Of a DNA stretch of 48,555 nt, positions 1 through 48,555 are shown piece by piece; position 1 is the stretch's first letter, and each line of letters opens with the position of its first letter. A program made the translations under genes and the position numbers. This DNA is from a virus, in IMG/VR virus record IMGVR_UViG_3300025323_000011, positions 1-48,555 of that record. One strand, written 5' to 3'. The notes beneath the pieces are model-generated. The model was not told where the DNA came from and ran no database searches. It saw only the letters and a list, made by a program, of their open reading frames with translations.

Positions 1-568
1 TCAAAGCGAAGACTAGGGGTCAGAGACGATGGGATTCTTCTTTCAGTCCCCTAGAAGTGGGCAAAAGATGGTTCTATTCCGAACTTTGGGGGCTAGCAGA
101 AGTGAAGACAAAGTATGGGTGGGAGACGAAGGCAATGAGAGACACACTAGGTCTCAAGAAGACTAGCAGGAAGATGGCAGAAGTATTTGAGGCGCACTGC
201 GTAGATTCATGGGTACTGGCATCATCTGCTGTTGGGGGAACAGTGCCGGACAATACGCGGCTGCTCTGCGTGACGCCGCTTCGATTTCATCGTCGTCAGC
301 TTCATAGATTTCAGCCCGATAAGGATGGAGTACGAAAACTTTACGGTGGAACACGAAGCCTTGGTTTCAAGAGGGGGTCAGTGGTAACACACTCGAAATG
401 GGGTGTCTGTTATGTGGGTGGGACGATGGGTGGTAGAATTAGTCTGCATTCGGAGGTGGATGGTAAAAGGCTTTGTCAGAACGCCGAGCCATCCGATTGT
501 AAGTTTCTGGCATATTCAAGTTGGAGGACGCGGCTTCTTCCCGGACTAAAGTCCGAGATTTCCGCCGT
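1..568 (+). mobile_element. Right-hand part of IsrB/OMEGA (IS200/IS605-like) element, copy 1
   Basis: The right end carries a perfect hairpin (CGGACTAAAGTCCG, 542-555), the counterpart of 47665-47678 in copy 2. Sequence similarity with copy 2 stops at the GTGA (569-572), which I take as the target-adjacent motif and the start of host phage DNA. The bases after it (GAGGAAGTT then ATG) form a plausible ribosome binding site for the next gene, so the insertion left its translation intact. No Y1 transposase is visible here; the left end is off the window. Confidence 0.7.
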
Positions 569-572
569 GTGA
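1..572 (+). CDS. isrB: IsrB-like RuvC nickase, C-terminal part (runs off the left edge)
   Basis: Open reading frame already open at base 3 and cut by the window edge. It aligns from its first codon with residue 208 onward of the complete IsrB at 46502-47695, about four-fifths identical by eye. The RuvC-III motif (EAHCVDSW) and the C-terminal domain (RRQLHRF, KLYGGTRSLGFKRG, YVGGTMGG, GKRLCQ) are present. The GTG at 57 is internal and should not be taken as the start. IsrB proteins are OMEGA nickases: a RuvC domain guided by an omega RNA, without the HNH domain of IscB. The stop TGA (570-572) lies in a GTGA that appears to be flanking target DNA. The next gene starts 7 nt later. The catalytic RuvC-I and RuvC-II motifs and the omega RNA lie outside the window, so activity cannot be judged. 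Confidence 0.85.
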   Translation, partial: KAKTRGQRRWDSSFSPLEVGKRWFYSELWGLAEVKTKYGWETKAMRDTLGLKKTSRKMAEVFEAHCVDSWVLASSAVGGTVPDNTRLLCVTPLRFHRRQLHRFQPDKDGVRKLYGGTRSLGFKRGSVVTHSKWGVCYVGGTMGGRISLHSEVDGKRLCQNAEPSDCKFLAYSSWRTRLLPGLKSEISAV

Positions 573-579
573 GGAAGTT

Positions 580-2819: not shown

Positions 2820-4574
2820 ATGGGATTCGCTCAAAGAAGATTGACACGCCTGATTGGTGACACTACCACAAGAACAAATAACACCAATATTCAAGCCCAG
2901 ATGGGTGTTCCAGACACCTCTGTTGCAACTATTTATGATGATTTAGGGGATTTCACTGCCAGAGTTAACCAAACCAGTCTTTTATCGGACATCGGCTTGC
3001 CGGACGTTGCCGGTAAAGATTTGTACACTGTTCTGATCCCTGACCGCCTGAGCCACCCAATATTCGGTCTTTCCGCGCTAAAAACGGAGCATGATGCCAC
3101 TCAGGCGCTTATCGGTACGCCAGTTGGGGTGAGCCTAGCCGCCGACATCGCGGTAATTGATTCGACACTCGGCACGCCCGCTCTGGCAAGTATGTCCGCG
3201 GACATCGCGAACGTGCTATCCGCAATTCAGGCGGTTCAAAACAATACCAGATTCACGGCACAAGTCCCGACTAAATTTGTCTTACCGTCTGCCGGGTCAA
3301 TTGGGATTGAGATTTTTTCCAACCTATATGACACCGCCGGAAATATGGAAAATCCCGACGGTGATATGGCAATTGAGATCAAAAATTCGGCTGGAACAGA
3401 TCGAAGTGGTAATCTATACGATGATGCTGCACTCACCATCGGCGCTACGGGTACGGTCGAGGGTGGTTTGTCCGGCAAGGAGATGATTAGTCTCTCTACG
3501 GGCAGATTTCATACTTATTATAAATTGACATTCTCGGACGCCGAAGAAACATTGAATTTTCACTTTAGTTGGAACGAAAATGCCGTAACTATTCACCAGG
3601 ACCGCTCAACTGTTGTGGTCTCATTTGACGCCGATTTGAGTACCGTCTTGTCTCGTTTGGGGGCTGGTCTGGATGCGCAAGATGCCGCTACGAAACTGGA
3701 CAACATCAAGGCTGCTACGGACGCCGTACAAGCCGATGTCGGGAACCCGAGCGCAAGAGCTAATTTGACTTCGCTTGAAGCCATGCTTGGCAACCCTGAT
3801 GCTGCTGGATCGAGTATCTATGACAATCTTGGTGACTTCGTCGGCATGACAAACTTCTCTAGCCTAAAAGACGTTATCGGTCTACCAGATGTCGCCGGTA
3901 AGAGTTTGTACACCGTTTTGGTTACGGATAGATTAGACAGCGGTGCGTTCGGGCTCTCGGCCATAAAGTCCGCGGTAGATGCGATTTCCGCGACAATCGG
4001 TACATCCGTAGATGCGGCAGATATTGACGGTTCCATTTACGCGGCATTACAGTCCATTTATGACTCCGTCGTGGCAGTAGCTTCATCAACTGGCGCTAGA
4101 TCTAGCAACTACGTTCATTTTATCGCCCCCGGAGGGGCTGGTAGCGAATTAGATTCTACCGACCCAACAGAATTCGAGACATCTACTACGGCAGCAACAA
4201 CGACATCATTTGCTGAAATGTACTCTATTGAGATTGACACCACGGAAACGGATACCAAAACAGTAAATAGTGTTCTCCTAGACCTTTCGTGGAATGGCAT
4301 AGTCTCCGGTCCGGGCGCGAAGACTGGGCTATCCAAGTGGACCGTCGATGGTGGATCTGGCGCCGCTTTCGGATCAAGCGTTGACATCACTACGGATTTC
4401 TCCGAATCTTCAGTCAAAACAGAGCATAACGCGTCTGGCGCTATCAAATTAGCCGATATGGCAACGCTTCCGTTTACCATTTATCTAGCAGGTAAAATAG
4501 ACGACGTTGGGGATACTCTTACTTGCAAGGTGTTGTCAACATCAGAAGTACACATTTATTACGTCCTGTCATAA
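2820..4574 (+). CDS. Large virion / tail-fibre-like protein with internal duplication, 584 aa
   Basis: The protein contains two related segments, about residues 17-105 and 313-400. Both hold GxP..(x)IYD(D/N)LGDF, then IGLPDVAGK(D/S)LYTVL, then FGLSA(L/I)K, so a block of roughly 85 residues has been duplicated. The segments between and after them are beta-rich and Thr/Ser-rich, like phage fibre or whisker proteins. ATG 2820 follows GAGGGACAATACC, which supplies a ribosome binding site. No enzymatic motif is seen. Probably an extended virion-surface protein. Confidence 0.55.
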   Translation: MGFAQRRLTRLIGDTTTRTNNTNIQAQMGVPDTSVATIYDDLGDFTARVNQTSLLSDIGLPDVAGKDLYTVLIPDRLSHPIFGLSALKTEHDATQALIGTPVGVSLAADIAVIDSTLGTPALASMSADIANVLSAIQAVQNNTRFTAQVPTKFVLPSAGSIGIEIFSNLYDTAGNMENPDGDMAIEIKNSAGTDRSGNLYDDAALTIGATGTVEGGLSGKEMISLSTGRFHTYYKLTFSDAEETLNFHFSWNENAVTIHQDRSTVVVSFDADLSTVLSRLGAGLDAQDAATKLDNIKAATDAVQADVGNPSARANLTSLEAMLGNPDAAGSSIYDNLGDFVGMTNFSSLKDVIGLPDVAGKSLYTVLVTDRLDSGAFGLSAIKSAVDAISATIGTSVDAADIDGSIYAALQSIYDSVVAVASSTGARSSNYVHFIAPGGAGSELDSTDPTEFETSTTAATTTSFAEMYSIEIDTTETDTKTVNSVLLDLSWNGIVSGPGAKTGLSKWTVDGGSGAAFGSSVDITTDFSESSVKTEHNASGAIKLADMATLPFTIYLAGKIDDVGDTLTCKVLSTSEVHIYYVLS

Positions 4575-9621: not shown

Positions 9622-9666
9622 ATGCCTGTCACCGTTCTATTGCGCACGCAAATGTCTTTACTCTAA
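9622..9666 (+). CDS. Conserved 14-codon mini-ORF (copy A)
   Basis: Reads MPVTVLLRTQMSLL then stop. The duplicate at 46328-46372 reads MPVTALLRTQMSLF with only three base changes in 45, one of them silent. The upstream sequences of the two copies are unrelated, so similarity begins at this ATG. The block contains the inverted repeat TTGCG-CA-CGCAA (9640-9651 here, 46346-46357 in copy B), so conservation could instead reflect a DNA or RNA site. Treat as a candidate leader peptide or regulatory element. Confidence 0.3.
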   Translation: MPVTVLLRTQMSLL

Positions 9667-9705
9667 ACTAATCTTATTCAGTGAATTTCTTCGAGAGGCG
9701 CGAAG

Positions 9706-10026
9706 ATGGAAGATGAACTTATCCTAGACGAAATTGAGTGCGTCGATAGAACCCCCAACATGCTTGGCCGTAATGGGCTATTAATACAAATAATTAATGC
9801 GGGGATGCCGGTTACCGGAGCAGACGTTGAGGCCGTCGCAGACCTAAAAGATAAGATAAAAAATAATCGAGACGATAAACTTACATTCGATGAAATTGAT
9901 CGAATAAGTAATTTTTTTAGAGCACACGTCTGGAATTCTAACGGGGCCGAAGATTTGGCAGAAGTAAGCAGATATCTGGCCGATAAAATAAACACACTAA
10001 AATCAATCGATCAAAGTCCGGTGTAG
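9706..10026 (+). CDS. Helical protein of unknown function, 106 aa (copy A)
   Basis: ATG 9706 follows GAGAGG (9693-9698) at suitable spacing. The protein is acidic and mostly helical (ILDEIECVDRTPNMLGRNG, LTFDEIDRISNFFRAHVWN), with no known motif. A paralogue at 47702-48022 differs at the N-terminus (MEDELI here, MKSLTDELI there) because the sequence just before this point differs between the copies and an IsrB element sits upstream there. This copy is the unoccupied locus and shows the arrangement without the element. Role unknown; probably structural given its neighbours. Confidence 0.6.
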   Translation: MEDELILDEIECVDRTPNMLGRNGLLIQIINAGMPVTGADVEAVADLKDKIKNNRDDKLTFDEIDRISNFFRAHVWNSNGAEDLAEVSRYLADKINTLKSIDQSPV

Positions 10027-10039
10027 GATAAAAGGTAAT

Positions 10040-10550
10040 AATTGGGAAGACTAGATCGACTTGTTGATGAGATAGAATCCGGACAAAGTGAGGTCCGAAC
10101 TGAAGAATCAGGATCATCCACACCGTTAGTAGCATCGTCTTGGGTTTCAATTTTCTCGTTTATATCCACAGTAACTAAGCTACATGTTAGGGGACTAAAA
10201 ATAGACATATCTGGCGGCACTCCGACGGCGCTAGTAGCCAGAATCGTGGCTGGTCCGACTGGTGGGCCGCTCGTAAAGATTTTTCCATCGTCCGCGTCCT
10301 TTACAGTCGTAAGTAGTCGAGAAGAAACCCTGAGACACGAATTGACCATACCAAAAGATTACGATTACGAAGTGCAAGTAAATTGTACCGCTACTGGCGG
10401 AGCTTCCGCTACTTTGTCATTTTTAAGCATCACGGAAATAAATAAGGCCAGCTAGTGTCTGACATAGATTTTGTAAGGGAAATAAAACAAGTACAGGAGG
10501 AGGGGGCAAATCTAACCCTTCGTCCAACAATCAATTTTATTGGTAGCAAT
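10040..10550 (+). repeat. Long direct repeat, copy A (511 bp within the window)
   Basis: Nearly identical to 48045-48555 without any gap, with roughly twenty base differences by eye, mostly silent in the 137-aa gene. The first 96 nt of the next gene are identical up to the window edge. Copy B is cut by the edge, so the true length is greater. The high identity suggests recent duplication or gene conversion. Confidence 0.9.
10042..10455 (+). CDS. Beta-sandwich virion protein, 137 aa (copy A)
   Basis: TTG start (AATTGGGAAGACTAG), after AAAAGG. The TAG stop overlaps the GTG start of the next gene (TAGTG). The product differs from the copy at 48047 at about four residues (SFTVVSSREE here, SFAIVSGREE there, and Q/E in EVQV) and is a more distant paralogue of the 5091 product. 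It shares the ISGGTP, KIFP..ASF, LTIP and TGGASATLSF blocks. A compact all-beta virion or adaptor protein is the best reading; no catalytic motif. Confidence 0.65.
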   Translation: MGRLDRLVDEIESGQSEVRTEESGSSTPLVASSWVSIFSFISTVTKLHVRGLKIDISGGTPTALVARIVAGPTGGPLVKIFPSSASFTVVSSREETLRHELTIPKDYDYEVQVNCTATGGASATLSFLSITEINKAS

Positions 10551-13353: not shown

Positions 13354-13839
13354 ATGGAACCTCGACGAGGCGACATCCTCCTCTACTCTGGCCGAAGTCC
13401 GGTATCTCACGCGATAAAAAAAGTAATCGGGTGTGAGTGGAGTCACGGTGCATGGGTATTGGATGCCGGGGCCGAGACAATACTAGAATCAGATTGGCGA
13501 GGTGTACGAGTATCCAAGAATAAATACGCCAAAAACAGAACAAAAATTCTAAGAATAAACGCACCAATTATAGATGTCGAACGAGCGGTCACGCACGCCG
13601 AATCCCAAACGGGGGGTAAATACGACCACAAAGCCCTTTTTGGGATGCTATGGTTGTTCCTGACTTTCCAACGTGAGAATAAAGAACCGTGGCAGAGACA
13701 CAAGGCTTGGTTTTGTTTTGAGTTGATATCGGTCCCACTAGCCCGTTTTGGGTTTATTTTCAACAACAAGATACCACCGAGGGGCATAACGTCGAAAGAA
13801 ATGATTTCGTGTGCAAAAGTGCGCTCTATTGATCAATAG
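13354..13839 (+). CDS. Permuted NlpC/P60-like cysteine hydrolase, possible lysin, 161 aa
   Basis: The N-terminus reads RRGDILLYSG, then CEWSHGAWVLDAG.TILES.WRGVRV and, after YDHKALFGML, WFCFELI. The order GDIL, SH (histidine near residue 31), ..., C-x-EL (cysteine near residue 119) is that of circularly permuted NlpC/P60 (YiiX/YaeF-like) papain-fold hydrolases, with histidine before cysteine. In phages these can act as peptidoglycan peptidases in lysis or in the tail. Location after a small membrane protein supports a lysis role, but the homing endonuclease lies between them. The stop overlaps a perfect palindrome and a promoter follows at once. Confidence 0.6.
   Translation: MEPRRGDILLYSGRSPVSHAIKKVIGCEWSHGAWVLDAGAETILESDWRGVRVSKNKYAKNRTKILRINAPIIDVERAVTHAESQTGGKYDHKALFGMLWLFLTFQRENKEPWQRHKAWFCFELISVPLARFGFIFNNKIPPRGITSKEMISCAKVRSIDQ
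13826..13839. promoter_or_regulatory. Perfect 14-bp palindrome at the gene end, possible operator
   Basis: CTATTGATCAATAG spans the last codons and TAG stop of the hydrolase gene and sits 1 bp before the TTGACA of the promoter. With no loop it is more likely a protein-binding site than an RNA terminator. Its placement directly upstream of the -35 box would suit an operator; inference only. Confidence 0.35.
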
Positions 13840-46372: not shown

Positions 46373-46402
46373 ACTAATCTTACACAGTGGATTTCTTCGA
46401 GA

Positions 46403-46660
46403 GGCCCGAAGATGCAAGGTCAACTACCCCCGGCTAAAGCCGAGGGCTTGTGAGAAGTAGCAAAGCCGATACGAAACGAACAAGTTAAAAAGGAGACTAG
46501 AGTGGCCAAGATCGGCTCGCAAGAGGTCGTTAGAAGGCGACTGAACCACCTGCCCGTGGCAGGGCAAGACACGAGGGGGATGCTCCCCAAGTTCCTCTCC
46601 TCTGTGGTGGTCAGTCTCGATGGGGTGTATACACCTGTTTTCGGTCAGGGCTTACAGCAG
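46403..46660 (+). ncRNA. Omega RNA (HEARO-type) of the IsrB element, guide at its 5' end
   Basis: Expected position for an IscB/IsrB omega RNA: it starts in flanking DNA (guide 46403-46418) and continues into the element. Stem 1 CCCCCGGC/GCCGAGGG (46427-46434 with 46439-46446, one mismatch, TAAA loop). Further perfect stems: CCTGCC-CGT-GGCAGG (46549-46563), GGGGA-TGC-TCCCC (46576-46588) and GGTGTATACACC (46624-46635). The last three lie inside the reading frame upstream of the PLMP motif, so RNA and the apparent coding start overlap. The 3' end is approximate. Length near 260 nt agrees with IsrB-type omega RNAs. Confidence 0.7.
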
Positions 46661-47691
46661 AAAAACCGTGTTTACGTTCCGGTCGTTTCGAATGGTAGGC
46701 CGTTGATGCCGACTACGGAGTCACGGGCTAGGCGGTGGATCAGATCTGGTAAAGCGACTCCGTTCTGGTCGAAAGGAGTGTTCTGTATTCGATTGAATCA
46801 AGAACCGAGTGCGAAGAATGTCCAACCCGTCGCTTGTGGAATTGATCCCGGATCAAAGAAAGAAGGATTTACTGTCAAGTCAGAAACTATGACTTTTCTG
46901 AACATTCAGACCGACGCGGTGACGTGGGTGAAGGATGCGGTGGAAGTACGTCGGAATATGCGTAGAAGTAGAAGATTCAGAAACACTCCGTGTCGAGCAA
47001 ACAGAAAGAATCGGGCTCGTGGTGGTATCCCTCCATCCACGAAAGCACGGTGGCAGTGGAAGCTGAGAATAACGAGATGGCTCTGCCATATCTACCCTAT
47101 TTCTGTCTTTGTGGTCGAAGATATCAAAGCGAGAACTAAAGGACAGAGGCGATGGGATGCCTCTTTCTCACCGCTCGAAGTCGGTAAAAAATGGTTCTAT
47201 AAAGAATTGTCTGAACTCGCCAAAGTAGTGACGAAAAGTGGTTGGGAAACGAAGGAGATGCGGGACGCGCTGGGGCTCAAAAAGACGGGCAATAAGATGG
47301 CGGAGGTCTTTGAGGCTCACTGTGTAGATTCGTGGGTGCTGGCATCTAGCGCGGTCGGGGGGGCTGTGCCGGATAATACGAGACTTTTTTGTGCGACGCC
47401 GCTCCGATTCCATCGTCGTCAACTACACAGATTTAAGCCCGAAAATGGCGGCATACGAAAACTCTACGGCGGGACTCGGAGTCTCGGCTTCAAGCGTGGA
47501 TCACTTGTAAAGCACCCGAAATGGGGCATCTGTTACGTAGGTGGTACTATGGGGGGCAAGATTAGTCTGCATTCTGTTGAAAGTGGTAAGCGGCTTTGTC
47601 AGAAAGCCGAGCCATCCGATTGCAAGTTTCTGACATATTCGAGTTGGAGGACGCGGTTTCTCCACGGACTGAAGTCCGGGGTTTCCGCCGC
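46419..47691 (+). mobile_element. Complete IsrB/OMEGA element (IS200/IS605-like, no transposase), copy 2
   Basis: Left end at GTCAACTACCCCCGG with the subterminal stem 46427-46446; right end at GTTTCCGCCGC with the stem CGGACTGAAGTCCG (47665-47678), followed by GTGA (47692-47695). Similarity to copy 1 stops at GTGA. The flanks match the unoccupied paralogue: left flank 46403-46418 against 9697-9712, and the right side resumes at ATGAACTTATCC (47718 against 9713). The 26 bp between GTGA and ATGAAC are absent from the paralogue and contain AAGGTGA-6 nt-ATG once the left flank is rejoined, a good native ribosome binding site; so I place them in the phage, not in the element. No TnpA is present, so mobility would need a Y1 transposase in trans. 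Confidence 0.8.
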
Positions 47692-47695
47692 GTGA
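46502..47695 (+). CDS. isrB: IsrB: RuvC-only RNA-guided nickase of an OMEGA system, 397 aa as called
   Basis: PLMP motif at residues 67-70 with RARRWIRSGKA, RuvC-I at 113-118 (GIDPGS, catalytic D115), arginine-rich bridge helix at 150-160 (RRNMRRSRRFR), RuvC-II at 203-208 (VVEDI, E206), RuvC-III at 271-278 (EAHCVDSW, H273 and D276), then the C-terminal TAM-interacting domain. Only about 65 residues separate RuvC-II and RuvC-III, with no HNH, so it is IsrB not IscB. All three RuvC motifs are intact. AGGAG precedes GTG 46502, but the first ~50 residues overlap omega RNA stems; a start near GTG 46625 would give about 355 aa, the usual IsrB size. The stop TGA is supplied by the flanking GTGA. Confidence 0.88.
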   Translation: MAKIGSQEVVRRRLNHLPVAGQDTRGMLPKFLSSVVVSLDGVYTPVFGQGLQQKNRVYVPVVSNGRPLMPTTESRARRWIRSGKATPFWSKGVFCIRLNQEPSAKNVQPVACGIDPGSKKEGFTVKSETMTFLNIQTDAVTWVKDAVEVRRNMRRSRRFRNTPCRANRKNRARGGIPPSTKARWQWKLRITRWLCHIYPISVFVVEDIKARTKGQRRWDASFSPLEVGKKWFYKELSELAKVVTKSGWETKEMRDALGLKKTGNKMAEVFEAHCVDSWVLASSAVGGAVPDNTRLFCATPLRFHRRQLHRFKPENGGIRKLYGGTRSLGFKRGSLVKHPKWGICYVGGTMGGKISLHSVESGKRLCQKAEPSDCKFLTYSSWRTRFLHGLKSGVSAA

Positions 47696-47701
47696 TATAT
47701 T

Positions 47702-48022
47702 ATGAAGTCTCTCACAGATGAACTTATCCTAGATGAAATTGAATGCGTTGATAGAACTTCCAACATGCTTGGGCACAACGGACTATTGATACAAATAATT
47801 AATGCGGGGATGCCGGTTACCGGTGCAGACGTTGAAGCCGTCGCAGACATAAAAGGTAAGATAAAAAATAATCAAGATGATAAACTTACATTCGATGAAA
47901 TTGATCGAATAAGCAAGTATTTTATGGCGCACGTCTGGAACTCGAACGGTGCCGAAGACTTGGCGAAAGTTAGTAGGTATCTAGCAAATAAACTAGAAGC
48001 GTTGAAATCACACAACAACTAA
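47702..48022 (+). CDS. Helical protein of unknown function, 106 aa (copy B)
   Basis: Paralogue of 9706-10026; same length, with about a dozen substitutions and a different start (MKSLTDELILDE against MEDELILDE). The present ribosome binding region between the element and the ATG is GTGATATATT. Without the element the left flank would supply AAG just before it, making AAGGTGA six bases from the ATG. Insertion has therefore split or weakened the original ribosome binding site; translation may now depend on coupling to the isrB stop, 6 nt upstream. Function unknown. Confidence 0.6.
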   Translation: MKSLTDELILDEIECVDRTSNMLGHNGLLIQIINAGMPVTGADVEAVADIKGKIKNNQDDKLTFDEIDRISKYFMAHVWNSNGAEDLAKVSRYLANKLEALKSHNN

Positions 48023-48046: not shown

Positions 48047-48460
48047 TTGGGAAGACTAGATCGACTTGTTGATGAGATAGAATCCGGACAAAGTGAGGTC
48101 CGAACTGAGGAATCAGGATCATCCACACCGTTAGTGGCGTCGTCTTGGGTTTCAATTTTCTCGTTTATATCCACAGTAACTAAGCTCCATGTTAGGGGAC
48201 TAAAAATAGACATATCTGGCGGCACTCCGACGGCGCTAGTAGCCAGAATCGTGGCTGGACCGACTGGGGGGCCGCTCGTAAAGATTTTTCCATCGTCCGC
48301 CTCTTTTGCAATCGTAAGTGGTCGAGAAGAAACATTGAGACATGAATTGACCATACCAAAAGATTACGATTACGAAGTGGAAGTAAATTGCACCGCTACT
48401 GGCGGAGCTTCCGCTACTTTGTCATTTCTAAGCATCACGGAAATAAATAAGGCCAGCTAG
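48047..48460 (+). CDS. Beta-sandwich virion protein, 137 aa (copy B)
   Basis: TTG start. Differs from the 10042 copy at about four residues (SFAIVSGREE, EVEV), and most base differences are silent, so the protein is under purifying selection. TAG stop overlaps the next GTG. No obvious ribosome binding site is visible before the TTG here (ACACAACACAA), whereas copy A has AAAAGG; expression of this copy may differ. Same presumed adaptor or decoration role. Confidence 0.65.
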   Translation: MGRLDRLVDEIESGQSEVRTEESGSSTPLVASSWVSIFSFISTVTKLHVRGLKIDISGGTPTALVARIVAGPTGGPLVKIFPSSASFAIVSGREETLRHELTIPKDYDYEVEVNCTATGGASATLSFLSITEINKAS

Positions 48461-48555
48461 TGTCTGACATAGATTTTGTAAGGGAAATAAAACAAGTACA
48501 GGAGGAGGGGGCAAATCTAACCCTTCGTCCAACAATCAATTTTATTGGTAGCAAT
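48460..48555 (+). CDS. Fibre-associated protein, partial (runs off the right edge)
   Basis: The 32 codons present (SDIDFVREIKQVQEEGANL, LRPTINFIGSN) are identical in DNA to the start of the 10455 gene. GTG start overlaps the previous stop (TAGTG). The rest lies outside the window, so whether the full gene is duplicated cannot be seen. Confidence 0.6.
   Translation, partial: MSDIDFVREIKQVQEEGANLTLRPTINFIGSN

What the first reader, a model, noticed from the sequence alone, without database searches (positions are those of the whole stretch)
46403..47721. Phage-borne IsrB/OMEGA element whose junctions can be read from an unoccupied paralogous locus
The element at 46419-47691 sits in copy B of a duplicated cassette; copy A at 9622-10026 lacks it. 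The alignment gives the left junction (…gatgcaag | GTCAAC…) and shows the phage gene intact on the right. Compact RNA-guided nickases inserted in a phage fibre locus, with an internal empty site in the same genome, are rarely this readable.
Basis: partly seen in the sequence, partly recalled or inferred. Interest (0 to 1): 0.85.

Follow-up and report, generated by a model that had tools for sequence, protein, structure and literature searches.

The report
RNA-guided mobile element at start codon
A small selfish DNA element that makes an RNA-guided DNA-nicking enzyme has slipped in front of a phage gene, exactly at that gene's start codon; relatives in other phages and bacteria do the same, which fixes its true ends and suggests how it avoids silencing the gene it lands on.

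Summary
Window 46419-47701 is an IsrB (OMEGA) element: a HEARO-type omega RNA followed by a RuvC-only, HNH-less protein whose best structural match is DtIsrB. It sits in copy B of a duplicated phage cassette and is absent from copy A. The left junction (GATGCAAG|GTCAAC) is correct. The right junction is not 47691 but 47701|47702. The paralogue alone cannot give it, because the copies differ by a 16-nt indel there. Multi-copy phages, and unoccupied sites in 19 sequences from related cyanobacteria, show that these elements run from GTCA to the base before ATGA and insert seamlessly. In the window that ATGA is the start codon of the next phage gene. Copy A keeps a near-cognate target: two guide mismatches, same ATGA. 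Landing at a start codon is general: 37/44 phage and 47/48 bacterial junctions are ATGA, and about 80% open an ORF. In phages the left flank (guide) is enriched for the severed ribosome-binding site. In 19/44 phage elements, versus 3/48 bacterial ones, IsrB's stop codon lies within -4 to +15 nt of the downstream start, suggesting translational coupling. It is a new member of a known kind; guide-directed homing and coupling are inferred, not shown.

The parts
46419..47701 (+). Complete IsrB element, 1283 bp, from GTCAAC to the base before ATGA
   Evidence: Left: conserved GTCA start in relatives and HEARO model start. Right: shared sequence up to |ATGA in multi-copy phages and seamless unoccupied sites of relatives.
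46399..46418 (+). Predicted 20-nt guide (phage flank immediately 5' of the omega RNA scaffold), GAGAGGCCCGAAGATGCAAG
   Evidence: Position from the DtIsrB architecture (20-nt 5' guide, PMC9581776); only one other match in the window with up to 3 mismatches, copy A.
46419..46689 (+). omega RNA scaffold (HEARO-type)
   Evidence: Rfam RF02033 HEARO, model 1-211 of 211, 28.2 bits (below the curated 83), E 0.0016; 25 of 31 consensus pairs covary in an alignment of the window and 22 relatives from viral contigs.
46427..46446 (+). Left-end hairpin CCCCCGGC-TAAA-GCCGAGGG
   Evidence: 8-bp helix in the alignment, six of its pairs changed in both arms across relatives.
46625..47695 (+). IsrB protein (PLMP, RuvC I-III, bridge helix, C-terminal domain; no HNH). 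Start uncertain: GTG at 46625 proposed; longest ORF starts at 46502; conserved domain starts at 46676
   Evidence: PF14239 E 6.6e-32; DtIsrB 8dmb E 7e-44 by sequence and E 1e-23, TM 0.74 by fold. The 46502 start would overlap the omega RNA, where several relatives have stop codons.
47651..47693 (+). Right-end imperfect hairpin
   Evidence: Single-stranded DNA fold -12.8 kcal/mol, z -3.2 against shuffles; conserved layout in relatives.
47702..47705 (+). ATGA: target-adjacent motif and start codon of the displaced phage gene
   Evidence: Same motif at 37 of 44 phage and 47 of 48 bacterial curated junctions; NTGA is the DtIsrB TAM.
47702..48022 (+). Displaced phage gene (106 aa, unknown function), starting 6 nt after the IsrB stop codon
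   Evidence: ORF list; paralogous to 9706-10026.
9693..9716 (+). Unoccupied near-cognate site in copy A: guide match with 2 mismatches (positions 4 and 13 from the TAM) followed by ATGA
1..579 (+). 3' part of a second IsrB element (copy C), cut by the contig start; IsrB stop 570-572, then |ATGA at 580 starting a 66-aa ORF
   Evidence: 77% nt identity to 47124-47695; right end read.

Best explanation
An IsrB/HEARO mobile element without its own transposase is inserted, with no target duplication or loss, directly 5' of the ATGA start codon of a small phage gene. Transcription from outside gives an omega RNA whose guide is the phage flank 46399-46418; with IsrB it would nick guide-matching DNA followed by NTGA, that is the unoccupied allele, helping the element persist or be copied into empty sites by recombination. 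The movement itself would need a TnpA (Y1) enzyme from elsewhere. The displaced gene has lost its own ribosome-binding site and is probably still expressed through translational coupling to IsrB, whose stop codon ends 6 nt before the ATG. Shown here: identity, boundaries, target motif, unoccupied paralogue. Inferred: nicking, homing, coupling. The confidence given is for identity, boundaries and target motif; for homing about 0.5 and for coupling about 0.4.
For: DtIsrB match by sequence and fold with RuvC D, E and H..D kept and no HNH. HEARO model match from 46419; covarying omega RNA. Same-phage copies share sequence from |GTCA to |ATGA in different flanks. Joined flanks of three bacterial elements match uninterrupted DNA in 19 sequences from relatives with no gap at the junction. 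Published: an IsrB element moved into phage Mic1 in culture at an ATGA (PMC11237433). Copy A has the same site unoccupied with ATGA. IsrB stop within -4 to +15 nt of the downstream ATG in 19/44 phage vs 3/48 bacterial elements.
Against: No orthologous unoccupied site for this very phage: none of the genes or flank patterns I searched with has kin in IMG/VR. No TnpA in the record, which is a fragment. HEARO score is below the curated cut-off. 25 of 44 phage elements show no coupling, and the last ~20 nt of phage elements are not enriched for Shine-Dalgarno matches, so many displaced genes have no obvious rescue.
Confidence: 0.85

Rival explanations
1. The element ends at 47691-47695 (end of the RE stem or the stop codon), and the TGATATATT tail is phage flank; GTGA at 47692 would then be the TAM.
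For: The tail is the least conserved part of the right end; GTGA would also fit NTGA.
Against: Same-phage copies share the tail up to |ATGA; three bacterial elements are seamless only when the tail counts as element; ATG lies at a nearly fixed distance from the hairpin in relatives; copy A joins AAG directly to ATGA.
Confidence: 0.05
2. A domesticated IsrB that regulates the adjacent phage gene, like the TnpB-derived TldR repressors, rather than a mobile element.
For: Copies at gene starts in phages; TldR (abstract of PMC13418256) shows that phages can domesticate such proteins.
Against: Catalytic residues are intact; the guide is the element's own flank, differing at each site; ends are conserved; multi-copy phages and unoccupied sites exist.
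Confidence: 0.05
3. Start-codon landing is only a by-product: the TAM is ATGA and insertions inside genes are lost, so start codons are what remains.
For: The Mic1 insertion hit an ATGA inside a gene, where the phage did poorly (PMC11237433), so the enzyme itself need not prefer start codons.
Against: Among ATGA sites outside gene interiors only 39% (phage) and 26% (bacterial) open a gene-like ORF, against 30/37 and 39/47 junctions (rough gene calling, related elements not independent). Some further selection, such as being transcribed, seems needed.
Confidence: 0.5
4. Copy A once held the element and lost it by precise excision, rather than never having been occupied.
For: IS200/IS605-type excision leaves no scar (general knowledge).
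Against: Nothing in the sequence favours it; guide and copy A differ at two positions and by a 16-nt indel.
Confidence: 0.1

Closest known systems
IsrB (DtIsrB, PDB 8dmb; PMC9581776)
   Same: PLMP, RuvC I-III, bridge helix, C-terminal TAM-binding domain, no HNH; omega RNA of ~270 nt with a 5' guide; NTGA TAM
   Different: About 32% identity; phage-borne; ORF runs to 6 nt before the neighbouring start codon; activity untested
HEARO RNA (Rfam RF02033)
   Same: Full-length model match beginning exactly at the element's left end
   Different: 28 bits against a curated 83; no HNH endonuclease ORF. From memory, the original HEARO report already noted integration before ATGA/GTGA; that paper was not held, so not checked
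Microcystis ORF2067 IsrB element that moved into phage Mic1 (PMC11237433)
   Same: IsrB element inserted in a phage at ATGA with ~200 bp upstream and ~60 bp downstream of the ORF
   Different: There inside a gene and harmful; here at a start codon
IS200/IS605 TnpB/IscB elements
   Same: Subterminal hairpins, seamless insertion, guide taken from the flank
   Different: No TnpA in the record

Membership tests
IsrB | RuvC I-III catalytic residues (D, E, H..D) with bridge helix and PLMP motif | tested here: met
   Catalytic residues invariant across 23 aligned sequences; alignment to DtIsrB
IsrB | No HNH domain, about 350 aa | tested here: met
   Only PF14239 found; no HNH-sized insert in the alignment to DtIsrB; 356 aa from GTG 46625
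IsrB | Fold of DtIsrB | tested here: met
   AlphaFold2 model pLDDT 78, top PDB match 8dmb, E 1e-23, TM 0.74
IsrB | omega RNA upstream, guide at its 5' end from the flank | tested here: met
   HEARO match 46419-46689 and covariation for the RNA; guide position is by homology only
IsrB | NTGA TAM 3' of the target | tested here: met
   ATGA at the junction here and at 84 of 92 curated junctions; biochemistry not done
IsrB | RNA-guided nicking of the non-target strand | not testable with these tools
   Needs an assay
HEARO RNA (RF02033) | Score above the curated cut-off | tested here: not met
   28.2 against 83 bits, though full length and E 0.0016; 12 loci of relatives also gave no HEARO match above cut-off
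IS200/IS605-type element | Subterminal hairpins and seamless insertion without target duplication | tested here: met
   for hairpins; for relatives' unoccupied sites; for the window itself by homology
IS200/IS605-type element | Y1 transposase TnpA in the element or genome | tested here: not met
   No PF01797 in the record, which is a fragment; non-autonomous members lacking it are known (PMC9755519 reports few with TnpA)
IscB | HNH domain between RuvC II and III | tested here: not met
   NCBIfam IscB model matches only residues 62-209, 95 against a cut-off of 175 bits

The most novel reading that the evidence does not exclude
Phage IsrB elements form lineages adapted to the gap between ribosome-binding site and start codon: the TAM is the start codon plus A, the guide is the severed ribosome-binding site, and IsrB is read to the element's edge, in some cases using the TGA of the TAM itself as its stop codon, so the displaced gene is translated by 4-nt-overlap coupling and the insertion is tolerated in compact genomes.
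Probability: 0.4. Interest if true: 0.6.

Novelty: new member of a known kind. Interest (0 to 1): 0.45.

Why it matters
It fixes the ends and target of a phage-borne IsrB element to the base and shows that landing on a start codon is general in this family. How an RNA-guided selfish element lives in a gene-dense phage genome becomes testable: a gene cut off from its ribosome-binding site may be kept on by coupling to the nickase ORF. The paralogue in the same genome, with two guide mismatches and an intact TAM, is a natural test of guide specificity.

Tried and rejected
Orthologous unoccupied sites for this phage: protein scans with 47702-48019, 48047-48457 and 2820-4571, and exact DNA patterns of the left flank, all empty. 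blastn of the cassette in the phage collection gave one weak IsrB hit. The genome search does not draw relatives for a virus record. First automatic junction detection by perfect hairpins was too strict or mis-anchored and was replaced by anchored detection plus reading by eye. Phage-level synteny for L028: four related phages (L207-L210) carry the same downstream gene, with ATGA at its apparent start and no element left end found within 2.5 kb upstream, but are only ~63% identical in protein, so no base-level junction. The idea that uncoupled elements compensate with a Shine-Dalgarno in their tail is not supported in phages: tail matches are no better than random flank.

Full report
What is there. 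The longest ORF at 46502-47695 encodes a protein with PF14239 (RRXRR) at E 6.6e-32. It matches Desulfovirgula IsrB (PDB 8dmb) at E 7e-44 over residues 57-352. An AlphaFold2 model (pLDDT 78) has 8dmb as its best PDB match, E 1e-23, TM 0.74. RuvC residues D, E and H..D are invariant in 23 aligned sequences and there is no HNH domain. The N-terminal part of the longest ORF is probably not protein: it overlaps a full-length match to the HEARO RNA model (46419-46689, E 0.0016, below the curated cut-off), and several relatives have stop codons there. In an alignment of the window and 22 relatives from viral contigs, 25 of 31 consensus RNA pairs show compensatory changes.

The duplicated cassette. 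Copies A and B align on both sides of the insert. B reads GATGCAAG then the element; A reads GATGGAAG then ATGAAC. On the right, B has ATGAAGTCTCTCACAG between element and shared sequence, absent from A; an AGATGAA repeat suggests a slip deletion in A or a gain in B. The paralogue alone therefore does not fix the right end.

Fixing the right end. Four elements in one phage record (L078, L080, L083, L088) and two in another (L070, L072) lie in different flanks but share sequence from GTCA up to, and not beyond, ATGA. Flanks of three cyanobacterial elements (L107, L151, L172), joined at this junction, were searched in related genomes: 19 sequences read through without a gap at the junction, e.g. 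GCAAGTCA|ATGAAAAAC. So the element ends just before ATGA, with no target duplication or loss. In the window this is 47701|47702. Published support: an IsrB element moved into phage Mic1 during laboratory culture at an ATGA (PMC11237433), and the DtIsrB TAM is NTGA (PMC9581776).

Start-codon landing. In 44 phage and 48 bacterial junctions (curated by eye; identical contig regions removed, related elements kept), the four bases after the element are ATGA in 37 and 47, ATGG in 3 and 1. The junction codon opens an ORF of at least 40 codons in 35/44 and 40/48. Of ATGA sites lying outside gene interiors in the same loci, only 39% and 26% do so (rough gene calling; p 2e-7 and 2e-16 before any correction for relatedness). 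In most automatic cases the junction was picked as the first ATG in a window, which favours ATG but not the fourth base or the ORF. In phages the 20 nt left of the element are enriched for Shine-Dalgarno complementarity (55% against 24% of random flank, p 4e-4), while the element's own tail is not (16%). The insertion thus tends to separate gene from ribosome-binding site. IsrB's stop codon falls within -4 to +15 nt of the displaced ATG in 19/44 phage and 3/48 bacterial elements (Fisher 5e-5, relatedness not corrected); in nine phage cases the stop codon is the TGA of the ATGA itself. In the window both IsrB copies end 6-7 nt before the next ATG. Translational coupling is the simplest reading but is untested, and 25 phage elements lack it.

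Guide and paralogue. By homology the guide is 46399-46418. With up to three mismatches its only other match in the window is copy A (9693-9712), followed by ATGA, with mismatches at positions 4 and 13 from the TAM. HEARO nucleases tolerate mismatches poorly up through position 13 (PMC9755519), so copy A may be resistant; this is inference.

Mobility and relatives. No Y1 transposase is in the record. A tree of 135 IsrB proteins largely separates phage and bacterial elements, with at least five changes between them forced: long residence in phages with repeated exchange. The host phage has contractile-tail genes (sheath, tube, tape measure, baseplate), and the genes I searched with have no kin in IMG/VR.

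Novelty. Family, omega RNA and NTGA TAM are known, and virus-borne members of the wider group are known (over 16% of HEARO/IscB fragments called viral or prophage, PMC9755519). From memory, ATGA/GTGA integration was noted when HEARO was first described; that paper was not held. What I did not find in the papers searched is the start-codon coincidence with severed ribosome-binding site, and the IsrB stop-codon overlap, in phages.

Noticed in passing
window 1-579: Second, partial IsrB element (77% nt identical) cut by the contig start; its right end also lies directly before ATGA, with IsrB stop 7 nt upstream.
   Followed up: yes
window 48457-48555 and 10452-10550: The contig ends in sequence identical to copy A, so the record probably stops at an assembly repeat and the real genome is longer.
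   Followed up: partly
L174:3570-3764: A bacterial IsrB element sits between a SAM-I/IV riboswitch (43 bits, above cut-off) with its terminator-like hairpin and AGGAG site, and the start codon of the downstream gene.
   Followed up: partly
L078, L080, L083, L088 (IMGVR_UViG_3300023213_000432): One phage record carries at least four related IsrB elements (85-90% identical) in different flanks, all before ATGA.
   Followed up: partly
L128, L129, L144, L161, L169 (Ardenticatenales): In this bacterial group the 3' arm of the right-end stem reads AGGAGC (GGGAGC in L129) 8-9 nt before the ATG, as if the element brings its own ribosome-binding site.
   Followed up: no
window 13354-13839: Phage ORF matching a PHROG called enoyl-CoA hydratase-like (E 2e-17).
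   Followed up: no
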